Assembly (NCBI GenBank): GCA_015058145.1
Contig: SVCX01000012.1
Span: forward strand, 1 to 32,209
DNA from: Clostridiales bacterium
GTDB lineage: Bacteria; Bacillota; Clostridia; Peptostreptococcales; Anaerovoracaceae
Reading direction: 5' to 3'
Length of the DNA stretch: 32,209 nt
How positions within the stretch are numbered: position 1 is the first letter of the stretch; each line of letters opens with the position of its first letter. Below the pieces are notes generated by a model. That model searched no databases. It had not been told where the DNA came from and worked only from the letters and a program-made list of their open reading frames with translations. Below are positions 3,098 through 26,844 of this stretch, one piece after another. Both the position numbers and the translations under genes were made by a program.

Positions 3098-3168
3098 AAA
3101 AGAAAAGCCCTGGAGTCGCACCTCCAGGAACAATTCTGTGCATAAATGTCTCATCACGACTTTTGCCT
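3098..3168 (-). ncRNA. Predicted antisense RNA of small-peptide locus 1
   Basis: Inferred transcript of about 70 nt. It would start about 7 bases after the -10 at 3175-3180 and end at a hairpin with a 7-bp stem (3109-3115 with 3122-3128) followed by a T-rich tract on the minus strand. Its 5' half is complementary to the peptide mRNA start region. Forward-strand matches are GTGCA (3138-3142 and 3283-3287), AAATG (3144-3148 and 3288-3292), CATCA (3152-3156 and 3298-3302) and GACTTTT (3158-3164 and 3304-3310). Promoter, terminator and targeted complementarity together indicate an antitoxin-type RNA. Ends are approximate. Confidence 0.75.
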
Positions 3169-3174
3169 AAATGA

Positions 3175-3204
3175 ATTATAGCAAATTGGAAAATAGTATG
3201 TCAA
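3175..3204 (-). promoter_or_regulatory. Promoter of antisense RNA 1
   Basis: Read on the minus strand: TTGACA (3199-3204), an 18-bp spacer, then TATAAT (3175-3180). Both hexamers match the sigma-70/A consensus exactly. Confidence 0.88.
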
Positions 3205-3211
3205 TAGCATA

Positions 3212-3240
3212 TTTACATTAATTTCCACTTATGGTATAGT
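3212..3240 (+). promoter_or_regulatory. Promoter of small peptide 1
   Basis: TTTACA (3212-3217), a 17-bp spacer, then TATAGT (3235-3240). The predicted start leaves a leader of about 43 nt before the ATG. It is divergent from the antisense promoter, with the two -35 boxes 7 bp apart. Confidence 0.85.
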
Positions 3241-3289
3241 CTTCTTGTTGCTATTCTCCTATACTGTAGCGGCAGAAAGGAGGTGCAAA

Positions 3290-3379
3290 ATGAATATCAT
3301 CATGACTTTTATTGTGTCTACTATAGCAAGTATAATAGCCTATTATATTTGCAAATGGCTGAGTAGATATCTCAAATAG
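3290..3379 (+). CDS. Small hydrophobic peptide, predicted type I toxin (locus 1)
   Basis: A 29-residue peptide: one membrane segment (MNIIMTFIVSTIASIIAYY) followed by a Cys and a basic tail, CKWLSRYLK. AAAGGAGG lies 6-7 bases before the ATG. The tail matches that of the peptide at 26215-26304 (CKWLERFLK), and both genes have a divergent antisense RNA. Short single-span peptides with a charged tail are typical of type I toxins such as TisB, ZorO, ShoB and Fst, which depolarise membranes when over-made. Toxicity is inferred, not seen. Bases 3375-3383, spanning the stop codon, can pair with 3247-3255 in the leader. Translation is probably repressed by the antisense RNA. Confidence 0.82.
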   Translation: MNIIMTFIVSTIASIIAYYICKWLSRYLK

Positions 3380-3392
3380 CAACCAGTCTTAT

Positions 3393-3418
3393 ATCTCCGA
3401 GATCGCACGCTCGGAGAT
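3393..3418 (+). terminator. Terminator hairpin of small peptide 1
   Basis: Perfect 9-bp stem (3393-3401 with 3410-3418, ATCTCCGAG/CTCGGAGAT) and an 8-nt loop, followed by a weak T-rich stretch. It lies between the peptide and the convergent gene ending at 3425 and may also close that gene. Confidence 0.7.
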
Positions 3419-3424
3419 GTAGTA

Positions 3425-3772
3425 TCATTTTAGCGTCTCCCATTCTCCCTGCTTAAAGCCGACCAGTACTGCATCGTCTTTGATCAGCAGTGGCCGCTTC
3501 ACCAGCATGCCGTCGCTGGCCAGCAGGTCATACATCTCATCTTCTGTCATATTCGGCAGCTTATCCTTCAGCTGCAGCTCGCGGTACAGCATACCGCTCG
3601 TATTGAAGAACCTGCGCAAAGGCAACCCGCTCTCCTTGTGCCACTTCACGAGTTCCTTCCTCGTCGGGTTCTCCTCTTTGATATCTCTTTCGTCAAAAGC
3701 AATCCCATTCTCCTCCAGCCACTTGCGTGCCTTCTTGCATGTGGAGCACTTCGGGTAACATACAAATAACAT
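3425..3772 (-). CDS. ArsC/Spx family thioredoxin-fold protein
   Basis: A 115-residue protein beginning MLFVCYPKCSTCKKARKWLE, which gives the CxxC redox pair of the Spx/MgsR/YffB branch. DERDIKEENPTRKEL and VLVGFKQGEW near the end are typical of the family. The RPLL motif (VKRPLLIKDD) is also present. Branch members are either small reductases or Spx-type regulators that bind RNA polymerase alpha; residues alone do not decide, though the length fits both. AGGAGG precedes the ATG by 7 bases. It is the last of four co-directional genes starting at 5850. Confidence 0.88.
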   Translation of the reverse strand: MLFVCYPKCSTCKKARKWLEENGIAFDERDIKEENPTRKELVKWHKESGLPLRRFFNTSGMLYRELQLKDKLPNMTEDEMYDLLASDGMLVKRPLLIKDDAVLVGFKQGEWETLK

Positions 3773-14940: not shown

Positions 14941-15927
14941 TCATTCTTCTTTTGGTACTGGAATGTACACCTTCTCCAGTGGAATTATCTGTTGATACTT
15001 CTCGTCCAAATCTTCATAGTATTTCAGAATCAAATCAACCAGTTCCAAGCCATTGATACCCTTGATGATAGGCACACTCTGGAGATACTTTCTCGCATTC
15101 GGTTTGTAATCTGCCAGTGTTACAAACAGGCCATAGTCGCCTTCACGCATGGCGCCCTTAAGAGACTGAATCGTGGCTTCCTTGATATCGCCGTCACCAC
15201 TCTTGGCCTGCACTAGAATCCTTGGCGGCAGTTCATCCTTATACGCTGTGATATCAATTCCGCTGTCACCACCCTGAGGAGACACCTCGGCCCGGTATCC
15301 CATCGCACGGAGAAGATCCGCCAGGAACAGTTCAAAATCATAACCCTTCAGATTCTTACTCAGTTCCTTCAGGATAAAGTCCTTTGTGCTCTCCTTGATT
15401 TCCTCCGCCGTAGCACCAATTGTGTTATCCGCTTCATCCGGCGGTGTCATTTTTTTAGTTCCGCCGGCCAGTGCCTCTAGGAACTCATCCGCATAATTCT
15501 TTACGGAAAAGAAGGACAGGGCCGATCCAACTTCATATAAAGCTCCTTGTGAAAAGAACGTGCGCGGCAGATGCTTAAGCCACTTCACATTTCTTCTATG
15601 AACGTATTCCCCATCCTCTTCATAATAATAGTCACCCTCGACGACTCCGATGTTGATTTTACGATCGACCTTCGATGGAAATACAACATAATCATTCGGT
15701 TGGATTTCATGGCGGAATCGATACAGCATTCCAGCGGAAGTTGAAATCTTTCCCTTCTTTGAATCCGGATATGTCTTTGCATAGTGATCCTTAAACGCTT
15801 CCCGGCTGTTATCGATCAGATTGAGATCACCGATCTCGCTCCATCCGAGCGCAATGACATCCTTCTTTAGAAATAGGTTGTCGTCCAGTGAGTGAATCCC
15901 CCAGACTCTTTTCTCTTCTGTACTCAT
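14941..15927 (-). CDS. Mrr-like restriction endonuclease
   Basis: A 328-residue protein. The N-terminal half (VWGIHSLDDNLFLKKDVIALGW, then NDYVVFPSKVDRKINIGVVEGDYYY) resembles PUA/EVE-like or Mrr N-terminal recognition modules. The C-terminal half holds the nuclease: GYDFELFLADLLRAMGY, then GGDSGIDITAYKD and ILVQAKSG, the D...QxK form of the PD-(D/E)xK site. Mrr-type enzymes often cut methylated DNA, but members also serve as type II nucleases. It follows the AlwI-like gene by 27 bases with an AAGGA site and is probably in the same operon. Confidence 0.88.
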   Translation of the reverse strand: MSTEEKRVWGIHSLDDNLFLKKDVIALGWSEIGDLNLIDNSREAFKDHYAKTYPDSKKGKISTSAGMLYRFRHEIQPNDYVVFPSKVDRKINIGVVEGDYYYEEDGEYVHRRNVKWLKHLPRTFFSQGALYEVGSALSFFSVKNYADEFLEALAGGTKKMTPPDEADNTIGATAEEIKESTKDFILKELSKNLKGYDFELFLADLLRAMGYRAEVSPQGGDSGIDITAYKDELPPRILVQAKSGDGDIKEATIQSLKGAMREGDYGLFVTLADYKPNARKYLQSVPIIKGINGLELVDLILKYYEDLDEKYQQIIPLEKVYIPVPKEE

Positions 15928-15954
15928 ATTTTTATTCCTTCTCTACTTTAAATC

Positions 15955-17910
15955 TTATGCAAGCGAATATGATCCATTTTCAAACAACTCTGAATTGGTC
16001 ATTACTATCCTTGGCTCTGCGTTATCACCTTCAAATGCAACTAGCACGCTGTTCTCTTGGAATCCCACAACACATCCAATTTCACCGGTTTCAGTATTTC
16101 GAACTTTTGAGCCGAAGTATATTCCGTAAGGAAAGGACATGTTATCATTTACGGTATATATCATTTGAGGTTCCGCTACGGCAAAACCTGTTTCAAAGGT
16201 ATCTCCCTGAATTCTGTCTCTAATTGTACCATCAATATAATTCTTCCACGCTGGAGCCTCCATTATATCTCGTTTTCTAGCACAATTGTCAATCAATTCA
16301 ACGAGTCTATCCGGAGTTGCATCCCCCGATGTAAACATGAAATCAAAATACTGTTGGAATTGTGCCAGAGTGAATGGAACAATATTCAATCGTTGCTGTT
16401 CATCCCCTCGTTTATACCAAACACCATGCCTAAACGTTTCGGCTGTATTGGTGTCTATTCTTACCGCTATGAACATGCCATAGACAGGTTTATCATAAGC
16501 TTCAACCGCATCCGCAACGTGTCGTCTAACAGGCTCTCCTTCCATTGCTTCCTGTCTCGTTGATGTTGACATGGTAACTTCAGTTAATATTGTGTAATCA
16601 TTAAACTCACAGTACAAATCTCCCCTACCACCTCCTGCAGCTGATACAGGAAGAAAATCTGAATCAAGCCTAAATCCACGTATTTCATACGGCTGATTTT
16701 GTAAATGATCTATTGCTAAAATAGCACGCCACAAAACCCATTCGAGGTATGCCGGCATCTCATCTCTTGGAACTTCTATCACATAGTCCTCATTATATCT
16801 TCTCGTCCCACCTCCGTTTATCAACAGCGTCATATAATCAGAAATCTCTTGCCATCTATTTCTCTGATCTTCTGCATAAAGGATCTCATCTGTTTCGGAT
16901 AACAGTCTTTCAAGTCTCCGCCTCGCAACATTCACTTCTGCTGCAGTTGTTAACGGTAAATCTGTGATATCAAATAGAATATGCCTTTCTCTCAAAACAT
17001 TCTGCAATTCGTCAAGGACTGCTGTTGCCACTTTAAGATTATCCGTTGGTAAAGGAGCACCTTCCGTTAGAATTTTGAATTCATCAAGCATAGGCCCTGT
17101 GCTTGCCGTTGCCTTTGCTAAACTTTCAGCGATTACATGCTTTGTTGGAGCAATAATAAGTCCACGGCCCTTTCGCTGAAGTACTCCGGATATGCGGAGA
17201 TACCTCATATTCATGTCGCTATAATCTAAAAAGTTTTCTTTTTTCTTATCATAATGTTCACCACGTTCTGCAATTTCATTTCTATCAAACACTCTTTTTG
17301 ATGGCGCTGCAGCCCGTCTCTCACGAAGGTCAATAATTCGGTCTACAACCTCGTTTAAATCATAACTTGGATTTGTTGTGTGCCCATATAAGCCAAACTC
17401 TATCCTGGACAGTTCCGACGTTCCTGTTCGCCGCTCCAATTCCAACATAATGGCGAGAATCCATCTGAAAGGAGAAAAGTGACCCGCATGATCTGGAAGC
17501 CAGAACTGCTCGACAGTTAAAGACCTCAGGAAGCACTCTTGCATGGCTGGTATTGTATCTGCAGTAAGAAAAACCCTACCGAACGGAGTGATCGAGTCAA
17601 GTTCTCCTAGTTCTTCCTGCCTGAACCCATTTTCTCTGCTTGCCTGACCATAAATGAAACCATTTTTCGCAAACATCAATCTCCATTTTCTTGCATGGCT
17701 TCCTGAAACATCGCGGCCAGCTTCATTTCGTATTACTCCGTTATCATTTAAGAATCTCATGAAACCGAGTTCCTGTTCGCGGCCATGAAGATTCCCAACA
17801 AAAGGAGAGCCTGCAAAGGCTCTAAACCCTTCTTGAATTCTCATTGGATTTCGAAGACCAGTATTGCCTACAAGCCAGATAGAGATCGCTTCATTTTCAT
17901 CAAATCTCAT
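15955..17910 (-). CDS. AlwI family type IIS restriction endonuclease
   Basis: A 651-residue protein. N-terminal TGLRNPMRIQEGFRAF and FLNDNGVIRN, and FGRVFLTADTIPAMQECFLRSL, are typical of the AlwI/BstNBI group. The putative nuclease core at about residues 425-445 reads GRGDLYCEF and ILTEVTMST, giving the D...EVT catalytic set. Known members recognise GGATC or GAGTC and cut outside the site. The specificity here is not readable from sequence. The ATG has AAGGAGGG 5 bases upstream and lies 11 bases after the methylase stop, so the two are translated together, methylase first, as expected for host safety. Confidence 0.88.
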   Translation of the reverse strand: MRFDENEAISIWLVGNTGLRNPMRIQEGFRAFAGSPFVGNLHGREQELGFMRFLNDNGVIRNEAGRDVSGSHARKWRLMFAKNGFIYGQASRENGFRQEELGELDSITPFGRVFLTADTIPAMQECFLRSLTVEQFWLPDHAGHFSPFRWILAIMLELERRTGTSELSRIEFGLYGHTTNPSYDLNEVVDRIIDLRERRAAAPSKRVFDRNEIAERGEHYDKKKENFLDYSDMNMRYLRISGVLQRKGRGLIIAPTKHVIAESLAKATASTGPMLDEFKILTEGAPLPTDNLKVATAVLDELQNVLRERHILFDITDLPLTTAAEVNVARRRLERLLSETDEILYAEDQRNRWQEISDYMTLLINGGGTRRYNEDYVIEVPRDEMPAYLEWVLWRAILAIDHLQNQPYEIRGFRLDSDFLPVSAAGGGRGDLYCEFNDYTILTEVTMSTSTRQEAMEGEPVRRHVADAVEAYDKPVYGMFIAVRIDTNTAETFRHGVWYKRGDEQQRLNIVPFTLAQFQQYFDFMFTSGDATPDRLVELIDNCARKRDIMEAPAWKNYIDGTIRDRIQGDTFETGFAVAEPQMIYTVNDNMSFPYGIYFGSKVRNTETGEIGCVVGFQENSVLVAFEGDNAEPRIVMTNSELFENGSYSLA

Positions 17911-17921
17911 GCCATCCCTCC

Positions 17922-20018
17922 TTAGAATCCTACAAACAAGTATTCCTGGACAACATTGTTATGCGTTTTGGCCGAACTTTGATTGCCGAAAAAGTATGTG
18001 TAGTCTATGGGCACAACTTCAACATTGTCTTTGTATTTTTTCAGTATTGCAACCATTTCTTCCTTTGTAGGAAGGCTATTAGATGAATATGAAACTATTA
18101 TAATACTGTCCTTATATTTTTTAAACAGAGTGTCAAAAGCAGTTGATGCACCGGTGCGCGATGAAAAAGGTGTGGGGTATGACCTGAACTTCTTTGTCTT
18201 GGTATGCTCTTGTATCTCTACGCCCTTCCAATCGCGAGCAAGGCCCTCGATAAAGTGGTACCTTCGAACATATTCATTGTCCGATTTCGTGGAATAGTAT
18301 GGTGGATCAATGTAGACGAGATCTGGACTATCCACATCTACATCCATTGCGTCTCCCCATATTGACTCGTTTTTCTGTTTGTTATCGAACACAGCGAAGT
18401 TGACCGCTTCAACTCCCTCTAAAAATTGCTGCCTCATTGATATTTTTAAATCCCTGCGGCCATCATTATGCTTTTCACCACTTCCCACATATGTAAATAT
18501 TCCACGAGGCCTTTTCTTGGTACATGCCCGAATCAAAGCAGTCATTGCAATGGCCTGCTTGTATTCATCATCCATGGTCCAAATATTCCCTCTAAGAACA
18601 TCAATCAATTGATTGTCTTCATCGGAAAAGTACAAGCCCTTAAACTTGTCTTCAACAAATGTATTCCCTCGGCCCTTGTCGATTAATAACTGTTCGGCTT
18701 CCTCCACGGAAAGCTTTACTGTATTGTTTTCGATCATAGCCTTTGCAAAAGTCGCTGACATCGCCATGTAATCATTACATACAACTCTCTTCCCCAGTGA
18801 TTTGAAAGCATATCCCACAACCCCTGAACCGGAAAACAAATCTAAAACTGACTCGTATTGAAAATGAGATGCAACACCTAGTATTTCCGTTATCAGTTTG
18901 CTCTTTGACCCCATAAATCTAGTTGGTGGATACTGCTTGATCTGTTCCGGAATATTCAACTCATTCTGTGTGAAAAAATTGATTTTAGGGAAAGCCGTAA
19001 CAATTACATCTTCTCCCTTGCGTGAACTTCCTTTAGACGAGATTGCGCGCTTTGTTTCTATAACATCGATGTCATATTCCTGGTACAGTTCATGAACCAA
19101 TGGCGTGTTGGAATTTGTCAGTATGACGTAACAGCCTTTTTCCCTGCATGTTTTTACAGCGGCCGCTAGATTTCTATGATCTTCTTCGTAAAACTGCTCC
19201 TTCGTATATCTCTTGAAATCACCATATTCTGAAACTGGAACATATGGCGGGTCGAAAAAAATGAAGTCTCCTGCTTCCGCATACTCTTTAAGCACATCCA
19301 AATAATCGCCACACACTATCGTAGCGTTTTTTAATGCCTCAGAAGCCTTTCTTAAAGTGTCTTCATCACAGATGTTCGGGCGTTTATATTTCCCATACGG
19401 AACATTGAACTGACCTTTTCGATTAACCCTATATAATCCGTTAAAACAAGTCTTGTTGAGATAAATAAATCTCGCAGCTGCCTCTACGCCGTCCAACTCC
19501 TGCCAATCCTGGCTTCTTACCTCGTAAAACATTTCTGATGTGTTTTCGTATTGTTTTAGCTTGGTAATGAGCTCCTCAACATTCGAAGCAATCTGTTTAT
19601 ACAAATTAATAAGTTCAGGATTGCTGTCTGCAATCACTGCCCTCTCAGGCTGTACTGCAAAGAACAGCGCTCCACCGCCAAAAAATGGTTCGATATATTT
19701 ACCTGGATACTCTGGGATTCTTGGCACTAATTCTTTCAGCAGTTGTGTTTTCCCACCAGCCCATTTCACAACTGGCTTTGCTAATACCGTTATTGGCTTA
19801 TCCTCACTTACACTGTCTGAAGAAGAAATGCTCATGATATCTTTAATATCGCATTTGAGTGCAACACATATTTTCTCGAGGATTTCAGTATTAACGTTTT
19901 CATTCTTTCCCAGCTTAGCCACAGAGGTATGACTGATCCCTGCGATTTCACAGAGATCTTTCTTTTTCATATTCCGATCTTTAAGCAAGCCCCATAATGG
20001 TTCATACGTAATTGCCAC
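17922..20018 (-). CDS. HTH-fused double DNA adenine methyltransferase
   Basis: A 698-residue protein from GTG 20018, chosen because GGAGG is 7 bases upstream and a promoter overlaps the longer ORF. Domains in order: a Cro/C1-type HTH at about 5-65 (KKKDLCEIAGISHTSVAKL), then an alpha-class Dam-like methylase at about 80-340 (KWAGGKTQLL, YIEPFFGGGALFF, FFDPPYVPV). A second methylase follows at about 360-698 (RFMGSKSKL, DLFSGSGVVGYAF, YIDPPYYST). Two methylase halves fit an asymmetric site, one per strand, as in the FokI methylase. The HTH resembles controller proteins and may repress its own promoter. Partner of the AlwI-like nuclease. Confidence 0.92.
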   Translation of the reverse strand: MAITYEPLWGLLKDRNMKKKDLCEIAGISHTSVAKLGKNENVNTEILEKICVALKCDIKDIMSISSSDSVSEDKPITVLAKPVVKWAGGKTQLLKELVPRIPEYPGKYIEPFFGGGALFFAVQPERAVIADSNPELINLYKQIASNVEELITKLKQYENTSEMFYEVRSQDWQELDGVEAAARFIYLNKTCFNGLYRVNRKGQFNVPYGKYKRPNICDEDTLRKASEALKNATIVCGDYLDVLKEYAEAGDFIFFDPPYVPVSEYGDFKRYTKEQFYEEDHRNLAAAVKTCREKGCYVILTNSNTPLVHELYQEYDIDVIETKRAISSKGSSRKGEDVIVTAFPKINFFTQNELNIPEQIKQYPPTRFMGSKSKLITEILGVASHFQYESVLDLFSGSGVVGYAFKSLGKRVVCNDYMAMSATFAKAMIENNTVKLSVEEAEQLLIDKGRGNTFVEDKFKGLYFSDEDNQLIDVLRGNIWTMDDEYKQAIAMTALIRACTKKRPRGIFTYVGSGEKHNDGRRDLKISMRQQFLEGVEAVNFAVFDNKQKNESIWGDAMDVDVDSPDLVYIDPPYYSTKSDNEYVRRYHFIEGLARDWKGVEIQEHTKTKKFRSYPTPFSSRTGASTAFDTLFKKYKDSIIIVSYSSNSLPTKEEMVAILKKYKDNVEVVPIDYTYFFGNQSSAKTHNNVVQEYLFVGF

Positions 20019-20049
20019 ACTGTTTCCTCCTTCGTAATAAGTCATTTTT

Positions 20050-20078
20050 ATTATACTCCCTCTTTTGGTTGCTTTCAA
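20050..20078 (-). promoter_or_regulatory. Promoter of the restriction-modification operon
   Basis: On the minus strand: TTGAAA (20073-20078), a 17-bp spacer, TATAAT (20050-20055). It would give a leader of about 25 nt to the GTG at 20018. Confidence 0.85.
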
Positions 20079-20084
20079 CGAAAA

Positions 20085-20100
20085 TTCAGCGATCACTGAA
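20085..20100. promoter_or_regulatory. Possible operator upstream of the R-M promoter
   Basis: TTCAGCGATCACTGAA is a 16-bp imperfect palindrome with 5-bp arms (TTCAG/CTGAA), ending 7 bp from the -35 box. It could bind the HTH domain of the methylase; no direct proof. Confidence 0.4.
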
Positions 20101-20343: not shown

Positions 20344-20412
20344 TCACTCAACTTTTGACATCAATACTACGCACTCCACATGCTCAGTATGTGGAAACTT
20401 ATCAATACGCGC
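20344..20412 (-). pseudogene. C-terminal tail of an RlmD/TrmA-type methyltransferase gene
   Basis: The frame reads ARIDKFPHTEHVECVVLMS then KVE and a stop. The FPxTxHVExVxLL tail is the C-terminal signature of 23S rRNA (uracil-5-)-methyltransferases. Nothing else of the gene precedes it; instead the stop of the Lys-rich gene at 20402 overlaps it in another frame. The 3' ends of such genes (rum/rumA) are known integration sites of mobile elements in streptococci, so this may be a leftover attachment-site copy beside the accessory block. Confidence 0.7.
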
Positions 20413-20686
20413 TCCGTCCTCCCCACTTCTTTGGTTTCTTCAGTGTGGACTTCTTCGTCGTTCTTCGCGGTTCGGCTTTTGCTTCTACTGTTGACTTTGC
20501 AGCTTTTGGTTTGCGTTTGACAACCTTAACAGAGCTGGTGCTGCGAGCAGGAGTCTTAACTTCCCGATCAAAATACTCGCAGCCGGTCTCGCTGCACACT
20601 TTCCCCTCTTCTGCGTGCATGCAGCGCTCTCCTGCCTTTGGGCAATAGACCCAGTCTTCTTTGTCTGTAACGAATGCTCTGCTCAA
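20402..20686 (-). CDS. Small Cys-rich protein with Lys-rich tail
   Basis: A 94-residue protein. Residues 1-45 carry four Cys (YCPKAGERCMHAEEGKVCSETGCEYF), a likely zinc site. Residues 46-94 are Lys/Ala/Thr/Arg-rich (KVVKRKPKAAKS, then KKSTLKKPKKWGG), resembling histone-like nucleic-acid-binding tails. The start is a TTG overlapping the preceding stop as TTGA, with AAGGAA upstream. Its 3' end abuts a foreign rlmD fragment, so its original C-terminus may be replaced. Function unknown. Confidence 0.7.
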   Translation of the reverse strand: MSRAFVTDKEDWVYCPKAGERCMHAEEGKVCSETGCEYFDREVKTPARSTSSVKVVKRKPKAAKSTVEAKAEPRRTTKKSTLKKPKKWGGRSAY

Positions 20687-26029: not shown

Positions 26030-26098
26030 AAAAAACAACTCCGGAGCCGTATCTCCGGAGAAGTTTCGTGAGACTATGATCTCAACCGCTTTTCGCCT
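26030..26098 (-). ncRNA. Predicted antisense RNA of small-peptide locus 2
   Basis: Inferred transcript of about 69 nt from the promoter at 26105-26132. It ends in a perfect 8-bp stem (26039-26046 with 26053-26060, CTCCGGAG both sides) followed on the minus strand by TTGTTTTTTAT. It is complementary to the peptide mRNA over two blocks: 12 nt (26068-26079 matching 26207-26218, from the last base of the Shine-Dalgarno sequence through the ATG) and 13 nt (26082-26094 matching 26224-26236, codons 4-8). Pairing would block translation of that mRNA. The blocks differ in sequence from those at locus 1. Confidence 0.82.
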
Positions 26099-26104
26099 AT
26101 TTGT

Positions 26105-26132
26105 ATTATAACAAAGCAAGAAAAAAAGTCAA
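26105..26132 (-). promoter_or_regulatory. Promoter of antisense RNA 2
   Basis: On the minus strand: TTGACT (26127-26132), a 16-bp spacer, TATAAT (26105-26110). Confidence 0.87.
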
Positions 26133-26139
26133 CTATATG

Positions 26140-26168
26140 TTGTAAATAATTTCCATTTAAGGTAATAT
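26140..26168 (+). promoter_or_regulatory. Promoter of small peptide 2
   Basis: TTGTAA (26140-26145), a 17-bp spacer, TAATAT (26163-26168). Divergent from the antisense promoter with the same layout as locus 1. Confidence 0.75.
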
Positions 26169-26214
26169 ATTCTTGTTGCTACATCCAGACTGGCAACAGA
26201 AAGGAGGTGAGACT

Positions 26215-26304
26215 ATGAATATGTCAACCGCTTTTCTGATTTCGCTCGCAGCAAGTGTAGCTGCCTTCTGCATTTGCAAGTGGCTGGAGCGATTTTTAAA
26301 GTAG
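26215..26304 (+). CDS. Small hydrophobic peptide, predicted type I toxin (locus 2)
   Basis: A 29-residue peptide: membrane segment MNMSTAFLISLAASVAAFCI then CKWLERFLK. AAAGGAGG lies 7 bases before the ATG. It is a paralogue of the peptide at 3290-3379: same length, same CKWLxRxLK tail and an identical TAGCAACCAGTC at and after the stop. The leader segment 26175-26182 can pair perfectly with 26301-26308 across the stop codon. Together with the cognate antisense RNA this suggests tight translational control, as for membrane-damaging type I toxins. Toxic action is inferred from this pattern. Confidence 0.85.
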   Translation: MNMSTAFLISLAASVAAFCICKWLERFLK

Positions 26305-26319
26305 CAACCAGTCCATTAA

Positions 26320-26346
26320 CTCCGGAGCCGTATCTCCGGAGTTTTC
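26320..26346 (+). terminator. Terminator of small peptide 2
   Basis: CTCCGGAG stem (26320-26327 with 26334-26341), 6-nt loop, then TTTTCT. A 24-base stretch including it (26318-26341) is an exact direct copy of 26037-26060, the antisense RNA terminator. Confidence 0.88.
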
Positions 26347-26691: not shown

Positions 26692-26844
26692 CTACAGCAC
26701 CCAAAATCCGCCTGTGCCGACGGTCTTCTTCGCCTTCTTCAGCTTGGACTGTTTCGCTGCCTTGCGCGGCTGAGCCTTCACCCCTTTTGTTGCCTTTGCA
26801 GGGGCCTTTGTATTTTTAGATGTTTGCTTTTTCAGAATACTCAT
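26692..26844 (-). CDS. 50-residue Lys/Ala-rich basic protein
   Basis: Product MSILKKQTSKNTKAPAKATK continues to KLKKAKKTVGTGGFWVL; over a quarter of residues are Lys. GGGAGG lies 6-7 bases before the ATG, and an extended -10 promoter is upstream. It is disordered and likely binds nucleic acid, like the tails at 20402-20686 and 6006-6950, though it ends in a hydrophobic GGFWVL. Function unknown. Confidence 0.7.
   Translation of the reverse strand: MSILKKQTSKNTKAPAKATKGVKAQPRKAAKQSKLKKAKKTVGTGGFWVL

What the first reader, a model, noticed from the sequence alone, without database searches (positions are those of the whole stretch)
26030..26346. Undescribed-looking type I toxin-antitoxin locus with divergent antisense RNA
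A 29-residue hydrophobic peptide gene and a divergent ~69-nt RNA have facing promoters, each with its own terminator. The RNA matches the peptide mRNA perfectly over 12 nt around the start codon and 13 nt over codons 4-8. This layout, divergent genes with complementarity in the 5' region, is known from zorO/OrzO and shoB/OhsC in E. coli. The peptide family (CKWLxRxLK tail) is not one I can link to a characterised toxin.
Basis: partly seen in the sequence, partly recalled or inferred. Interest (0 to 1): 0.92.

Follow-up and report, generated by a model that had tools for sequence, protein, structure and literature searches.

The report
Toxin-antitoxin locus with relocated RNA antitoxin
A tiny membrane-peptide gene is paired with a small RNA that appears to silence it, as in a known bacterial toxin-antitoxin system, but here the RNA gene sits on the other side of the toxin gene and the two RNAs keep matching hairpin loops that change together from locus to locus.

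Summary
In detail: a 29-residue hydrophobic peptide gene (26215-26304, +) and a divergent ~69-nt RNA gene (26030-26098, -) share exact 12- and 13-nt complementarity over the start region. (1) The loops of the two separate terminators are also complementary (CCGUAU/AUACGG). (2) A second complete copy lies at 3098-3425, a third elsewhere in the genome. (3) Relatives in other genera have the classic Fst/par layout: convergent antisense RNA, one shared terminator. Of 97 family matches, 52 score convergent, 17 divergent, 28 unclear; all 17 divergent ones are in two genera. In 14 of 14 testable divergent loci the two loops match; for the 11 distinct undecayed ones, 0 of 110 non-cognate combinations do, and in some the stems differ while the loop is kept. 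The antisense RNA pairs best with its own mRNA in 10 of 10 loci tested. Best explanation: a par-like type I toxin-antitoxin system whose antitoxin gene moved, without inversion, to an upstream-divergent position, perhaps by tandem duplication and loss. New variant of a known kind; zorO/OrzO and shoB/OhsC are poor models. Transcription and toxicity are untested.

The parts
26030..26098 (-). antitoxin (antisense) RNA gene, ~69 nt, ends inferred
   Evidence: promoter and terminator; similar 5' end AGGC in 9 of 10 divergent loci printed
26105..26132 (-). antitoxin promoter TTGACT-16-TATAAT
   Evidence: 11 of 12
26039..26060 (-). antitoxin terminator hairpin; loop 26047-26052 complementary to the mRNA terminator loop
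26068..26079 (.). repeat a (DRa-like), antitoxin copy
26082..26094 (.). repeat b (DRb-like), antitoxin copy
26140..26168 (+). toxin promoter TTGTAA-17-TAATAT, read by eye
   Evidence: sequence; not listed by the scan
26172..26181 (+). 5' end of toxin mRNA (inferred), pairs with 26302-26311 (5'-UH-like)
   Evidence: fold; same helix at 3244-3253/3377-3386
26202..26209 (+). Shine-Dalgarno AGGAGGTG, predicted mostly paired (mean P unpaired 0.25)
26207..26218 (.). repeat a, toxin copy (end of SD and start codon)
26215..26304 (+). toxin-like peptide gene, 29 aa
26224..26236 (.). repeat b, toxin copy (codons 4-8)
26302..26311 (+). 3' partner of the 5' end (TAGCAACCAG), overlaps the stop codon
26318..26343 (+). 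toxin mRNA terminator; loop 26328-26333 CCGTAT
3098..3168 (-). second locus: antitoxin RNA gene (ends inferred); terminator 3109-3128, loop 3116-3121
3175..3204 (-). second locus: antitoxin promoter TTGACA-18-TATAAT
   Evidence: coordinates from the sequence
3290..3379 (+). second locus: peptide gene MNIIMTFIVSTIASIIAYYICKWLSRYLK
3390..3421 (+). second locus: toxin mRNA terminator; loop 3402-3409 ATCGCACG

Best explanation
[quoted passage not shown] A short, structured mRNA (5' end paired with its 3' part, Shine-Dalgarno mostly occluded) encodes a 29-residue membrane peptide that is inferred to be toxic. A ~69-nt RNA made from a strong sigma-A-type promoter just upstream, acting in trans, first touches the mRNA by a kissing contact between the two terminator loops, then pairs with the Shine-Dalgarno/start codon block and the codon 4-8 block and shuts translation off. 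In the commoner layout of relatives the antitoxin gene lies downstream, convergent, and shares one terminator. Here it lies upstream, still on the minus strand, so each RNA has its own terminator and selection keeps the two loops complementary. Shown by sequence: architecture, covariation, similarity to convergent loci, change of place without inversion. Inferred: transcription, toxicity, kissing as the first contact, that convergent is ancestral, and origin by tandem duplication (P-tox-T-as twice) and loss to T-as-P-tox-T.
For: Layout: of all 97 family matches, scored by place, the window's genus has 14 divergent, 3 convergent, 3 unclear; genus g19 3 of 3 divergent; other genera 0 divergent, 49 convergent, 25 unclear (cut-off = shuffle 99th percentile, so one or two of some 190 region tests would pass by chance). 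Terminator loops match in 14 of 14 divergent loci with both terminators (near-copies L017, L018, L044, L054 not counted); for 11 distinct undecayed loci 11 of 11 cognate against 0 of 110 non-cognate, 0 of 200,000 permutations as high (hairpins set by hand). Of the 14 positions flanking the shared loop only 4 (L002), 5 (L052, L058), 6 (L056) and 9 (L045, L125A) agree. Start-region duplexes of 10 divergent loci (L044 and the two L125 loci not given): cognate mean -36.5, non-cognate -16.3 kcal/mol, cognate best in 10 of 10 rows and columns. Antitoxin promoters match 11 or 12 of 12 positions in 12 of 12 divergent and 36 of 51 convergent loci, against 1.2% of shuffles. Folds of both window copies: 5'-3' helix, mostly paired SD, open terminator loops. 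L052, L057 and L058 have a disrupted toxin but keep the antitoxin and its loop. Antitoxin-side terminators of L024 and L125B still carry T-tracts on the other side (by eye).
Against: No expression or toxicity data. No Pfam or NCBIfam family matches the window peptide; no relative scores above the Fst_toxin cut-off (0 of 21 genomes). The PXXXG motif is absent, and one divergent copy (L125B) has R in place of the conserved W. In the fold of the first window copy the start codon itself is open (mean P unpaired 0.83). No tandem intermediate was seen. The tree of 45 loci needs two changes of layout; 27% of bootstrap trees give one. L003 lacks the mRNA terminator, so its loop cannot be tested. In 4 of 14 loci the stem positions are identical, in 4 more 12 or 13 of 14, as recent duplication would give. 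The RNA of the third copy has an intermediate predicted pairing with the other two mRNAs (-23.1 and -19.9). The divergent layout is known only from two genera of MAGs.
Confidence: 0.86

Rival explanations
1. A zorO/OrzO- or tisB/IstR-like system: a divergent antitoxin acting on a 5' UTR standby or processing site, unrelated to par.
For: Divergent layout; complementarity lies toward the 5' part of the mRNA.
Against: The leader is only about 40 nt (inferred start) and the pairing covers start codon and codons 4-8. Terminator loops covary. Relatives in other genera are convergent par-type loci. The review says those E. coli antitoxins do not overlap the start site (passages).
Confidence: 0.05
2. 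The loops match only because the two terminators are recent duplicates or are homogenised by gene conversion, with no role in antitoxin action.
For: In L001, L024, L038 and L125B the flanking stem positions are identical, in L010, L046, L053 and L057 12 or 13 of 14.
Against: In L002, L052, L058 (related to one another), L045, L056 and L125A the stems have diverged while the loop is unchanged; the start-region blocks covary as well.
Confidence: 0.1
3. The peptide is not a toxin but a small regulatory membrane protein, controlled by the antisense RNA.
For: No toxicity test exists; the peptide is in no curated toxin family.
Against: Toxin disrupted with antitoxin retained in three loci, relatives on small plasmids, several paralogues per genome and par-type regulation fit an addiction-type toxin; all of this is indirect.
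Confidence: 0.12

Closest known systems
par of pAD1 (RNA I/RNA II, Fst) and chromosomal Fst-family loci
   Same: Short hydrophobic peptide with W before a charged tail; two direct-repeat blocks at the start region; complementary terminator loops; 5' end and Shine-Dalgarno predicted occluded in the mRNA; small antisense RNA.
   Different: Antitoxin gene upstream and divergent, two separate terminators with covarying loops, no PXXXG motif, no match to the Fst_toxin profile. The review states that convergent promoters and the bidirectional terminator were highly conserved in the homologs examined (PMC7472228, section 1 read).
zorO/OrzO, shoB/OhsC, dinQ/AgrB, tisB/IstR-1 of E. coli
   Same: Divergent antitoxin RNA gene, small hydrophobic toxin (the latter recalled).
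   Different: There the antitoxin pairs within a long 5' UTR and not with the start site or coding sequence (PMC4147584, passages seen); here it covers start site, codons 4-8 and terminator loop.
Clostridioides difficile type I systems (CD2517.1-RCd8 and others)
   Same: Type I toxin-antitoxin systems of Clostridia.
   Different: Those toxins are 50-53 aa and the convergent RNAs share a long complementary region (PMC6563280, passages seen). NCBIfam CD_typeI_toxin appears for 2 of 11 members of A1, best E 0.0029, not for the window peptide.

Membership tests
par/Fst type I toxin-antitoxin | convergent toxin and antitoxin promoters | tested here: not met
   Divergent in both window copies; 52 of 97 family matches score convergent, 28 unclear
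par/Fst type I toxin-antitoxin | one shared bidirectional terminator | tested here: not met
   Two separate terminators; the 34 convergent rows show a hairpin downstream of the peptide gene, in most with A- and T-tracts in the stem
par/Fst type I toxin-antitoxin | complementary terminator loops of the two RNAs | tested here: met
   14 of 14 testable divergent loci; loops unpaired in the four folds
par/Fst type I toxin-antitoxin | direct repeats DRa/DRb over the toxin start region | tested here: met
par/Fst type I toxin-antitoxin | intramolecular occlusion of the SD and of the 5' end of the mRNA | tested here: inconclusive
   predicted in both window copies, without shuffle control or probing; start codon open in the first copy
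par/Fst type I toxin-antitoxin | conserved W between hydrophobic helix and charged C-terminus | tested here: met
   W23 invariant in 11 of 11 rows of A1; charged tail by reading; R instead of W in L125B
par/Fst type I toxin-antitoxin | P/D/S/TXXXG motif in the helix (majority of members) | tested here: not met
   no such conserved motif in A1 (by reading)
par/Fst type I toxin-antitoxin | match to the Fst_toxin profile (PF13955) | tested here: not met
   no match for the window peptide or any of 11 A1 members; 0 of 21 genomes over cut-off; none of 14 control genomes either (7 match below it), so the sensitivity of this test is unknown
par/Fst type I toxin-antitoxin | toxicity, repression by the RNA | not testable with these tools
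   needs expression
zorO/OrzO, shoB/OhsC, tisB/IstR-1 | divergent antitoxin gene | tested here: met
zorO/OrzO, shoB/OhsC, tisB/IstR-1 | pairing within a long 5' UTR, not over the start site | tested here: not met

The most novel reading that the evidence does not exclude
A permuted par system: tandem duplication and reciprocal loss moved the antitoxin gene from convergent-downstream to divergent-upstream, turning one bidirectional terminator into two. These are held complementary by selection on the loop alone, giving a naturally occurring compensatory-mutation series for the kissing step and a loop-plus-repeat specificity code that lets several modules coexist in one genome.
Probability: 0.7. 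Interest if true: 0.66.

Novelty: new variant of a known kind. Interest (0 to 1): 0.6.

Why it matters
In classic par loci the terminator loops are complementary by necessity, because one DNA hairpin serves both RNAs; that complementarity alone says nothing about function. Here the two loops are encoded separately and still match in every testable locus while changing between loci, sometimes with diverged stems. That is evolutionary evidence that loop-loop contact is under selection. It also shows that a type I system can pass from convergent to divergent without an inversion, and adds a peptide family of Clostridia and their plasmids that carries no annotation in the four plasmid records read.

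Tried and rejected
Rfam scan of the region: three matches, all at E above 1 and far below gathering scores. Pfam and NCBIfam for the window peptide: nothing at E up to 1. For the 11 A1 members at E up to 10: weak matches only, such as Ldr_toxin in 2 (best 0.051), DUF2158 in 4, a holin in 1 (0.011), CD_typeI_toxin in 2 (0.0029). PDB sequences: none. Fst_toxin profile in relatives: nothing over cut-off. Phage records: four weak matches, E 2 to 7. Viral contig scan with the CKWL/AGCAACCAG pattern: one hit, an unrelated stretch. The same pattern in genome contigs gave 21 stretches; 7 (three Pseudovibrio, two Brevibacillus, Neolewinella, Paludibacteraceae) gave no row and were left out; L098, L103, L104 and L105 are convergent by score, the rest are the divergent class or remnants of it, L088 cut by its contig end.

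Literature searches of the held library: Fst/divergent/direct repeats/terminator, ICKWLDR, divergently/par locus/Firmicutes, T1TAdb, small protein/Clostridia, bidirectional terminator/RNA II, KWLDR with toxin, rumen type I: no divergent par-type locus and no mention of this tail seen in the listings and passages. Most subscription papers are not held; the 2010 type I survey of Fozo et al. (identity recalled) is not held.

Rows and filters: one search counts 75 distinct rows (51 convergent, 12 divergent, 12 unclear), including 7 from outside the family and near-copies; its motif and Shine-Dalgarno filters dropped rows, among them L048, L052, L057, L058 and also L075 and L082, which score convergent. 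I therefore repeated the count by place for all 97 family matches. Blautia L103 scores 17.4 upstream and 17.8 downstream; I judged the upstream match a gapped AT-rich chance match. One search picked a wrong upstream hairpin for L024; I set it by hand. L047 and L050 are cut by contig ends. L057 scores unclear; I call it a decayed divergent locus by eye. The tree is weak: 7 of 42 inner branches well supported. All shuffles in my scripts keep base counts only.

Full report
Observation. The repeat score, 22.5, exceeds all 2,000 shuffles of the loci then in hand (maximum 17.1). Beyond the claim, the same hairpin CTCCGGAG-CCGTAT-CTCCGGAG occurs on the plus strand at both ends. As the two RNAs are made from opposite strands, their terminator loops (CCGUAU and AUACGG) are complementary.

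More copies. A DNA search of the own genome found three copies: this one, a second complete one at 3098-3425 of the same window and a third on contig C66. The second has another peptide (MNIIMTFIVSTIASIIAYYICKWLSRYLK), another repeat b (13 of 14 identical) and another loop (TCGCAC on the antitoxin side, ATCGCACG on the mRNA side). The third (L003) has the peptide and the antitoxin gene but no mRNA terminator in the stretch read.

Relatives. A DNA search of the family matched 9 of 148 genomes. A profile of 11 peptides (A1) then matched 45 of 393 genomes of the order and 13 of 49 of the genus at E 0.01, and 57 of 349 of the family at E 0.0001. I fetched the loci and scored the toxin start region against upstream and downstream DNA. 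For all 97 family places the result is: window's genus 14 divergent, 3 convergent, 3 unclear; genus g19 (one genome, G101) 3 of 3 divergent; other genera 0 divergent, 49 convergent, 25 unclear. The three unclear ones of the genus are two contig ends (L047, L050) and L057, which I read as a decayed divergent locus. L058, a weaker hit, is a decayed divergent locus too. Thirty-four convergent rows looked at have a terminator hairpin just downstream, mostly with A- and T-tracts built into the stem, and 36 of 51 convergent rows have a minus-strand promoter of 11 or 12 matches in the stretch downstream. That is the par/Fst architecture as described in PMC7472228 (sections 1 and 2 read). Of 34 plasmid records with a match I read four, from an uncultured bacterium, Ligilactobacillus salivarius, Waltera intestinalis and Mediterraneibacter gnavus: all four score convergent, and none has an annotated gene at the peptide.

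Divergent class. Named records of the same loci are MAGs titled uncultured Clostridiales, Clostridiales, Firmicutes or Bacillota bacterium. In a tree of 45 loci the divergent label (11 rows) needs two changes against 9.9 for shuffled labels; one origin is not excluded, and 27% of bootstrap trees show it.

Covariation. In every divergent locus with both terminators, 14 of 14 (near-copies not counted), the antitoxin loop is contained in the mRNA loop. For the 11 distinct undecayed loci this is 11 of 11 against 0 of 110 non-cognate combinations, and no permutation of 200,000 reached the observed sum. With the three decayed loci included, 4 of 182 non-cognate combinations match, between loci that share a loop (L046/L057, L052/L058; matrix). 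The hairpins were set by hand from printed sequence; those of 12 loci were checked by script to occur in them, the two of L125 by eye. The flanking stem positions are identical in L001, L024, L038 and L125B and 12 or 13 of 14 in L010, L046, L053 and L057, which recent duplication could explain; in L002, L052, L058 (4 or 5 of 14; these three are related), L056 (6), L045 and L125A (9) they have diverged while the loop is the same. The start-region pairing covaries too. For 10 divergent loci cognate duplexes average -36.5 kcal/mol, non-cognate -16.3, best non-cognate -28.2 (90 combinations), and the cognate partner is best in 10 of 10 rows and columns (intermolecular pairing only). The two window loci pair poorly with each other (-12.2 and -13.7); the RNA of the third copy is intermediate (-23.1 and -19.9).

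RNA structure. Both window mRNAs fold with the 5' CUUGUUGCUA paired to UAGCAACCAG at the stop codon, the Shine-Dalgarno mostly paired (mean unpaired probability 0.25 and 0.28) and the terminator loop open; the antitoxin loops are open as well. The start codon is open in the first copy (0.83) and mostly paired in the second (0.25). I take the first two features to correspond to the 5'-UH and 5'-SL described for par (PMC7472228); that is inference.

Decay. L057 and L058 have deletions that remove the toxin start, and in L052 the frame is not open from the ATG, while the antitoxin gene and matching loops remain (by reading). Losing the toxin before the antitoxin is what an active toxin would enforce; three cases, two of them in one genome, are suggestive only.

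Origin. The antitoxin gene is on the minus strand in both layouts, so it changed place without inversion. Two tandem copies P-tox-T-as, P-tox-T-as that lose the first toxin and the last antitoxin give exactly T-as-P-tox-T with twin terminators. The upstream terminators of L024 and L125B still have T-tracts on the side they no longer need (by eye). I saw no tandem intermediate among the loci read, so this remains an inference, as does the direction convergent to divergent.

Verdict. By sequence the locus works like par, but it fails two defining layout features (convergent promoters, shared terminator), so I file it as a permuted variant and not as a regular member. No description was seen in the searches of the held literature, which covers openly licensed papers only.

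Noticed in passing
window 3098-3425: A second complete copy of the same kind of locus, with its own repeats and loop, next to an ArsC-like small protein gene (name recalled, not searched).
   Followed up: yes
L004:2007-2096 (contig C66): Third copy in the genome: peptide (GTG start) and antitoxin gene present, but no mRNA terminator in the stretch read.
   Followed up: partly
window 14941-20096: A likely restriction-modification cluster: Mrr_cat protein, AlwI-type restriction enzyme and a 724-aa protein with an HTH domain and two D12-class adenine methyltransferase stretches. It lies between the two toxin-antitoxin loci.
   Followed up: partly
L057, L058, L052: Loci with deleted or frame-broken toxin that keep the antitoxin RNA gene and matching terminator loops.
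   Followed up: partly
window 26692-26844 and 20402-20686: Two small very basic Lys/Ala-rich ORFs, both with an LKKxKK stretch near the C-terminus, without a Pfam match.
   Followed up: no
L044 and L001, left edge near window 26030: The same locus in two genomes of the genus has similar DNA downstream but different DNA upstream, with the break at the A-tract of the antitoxin terminator.
   Followed up: no
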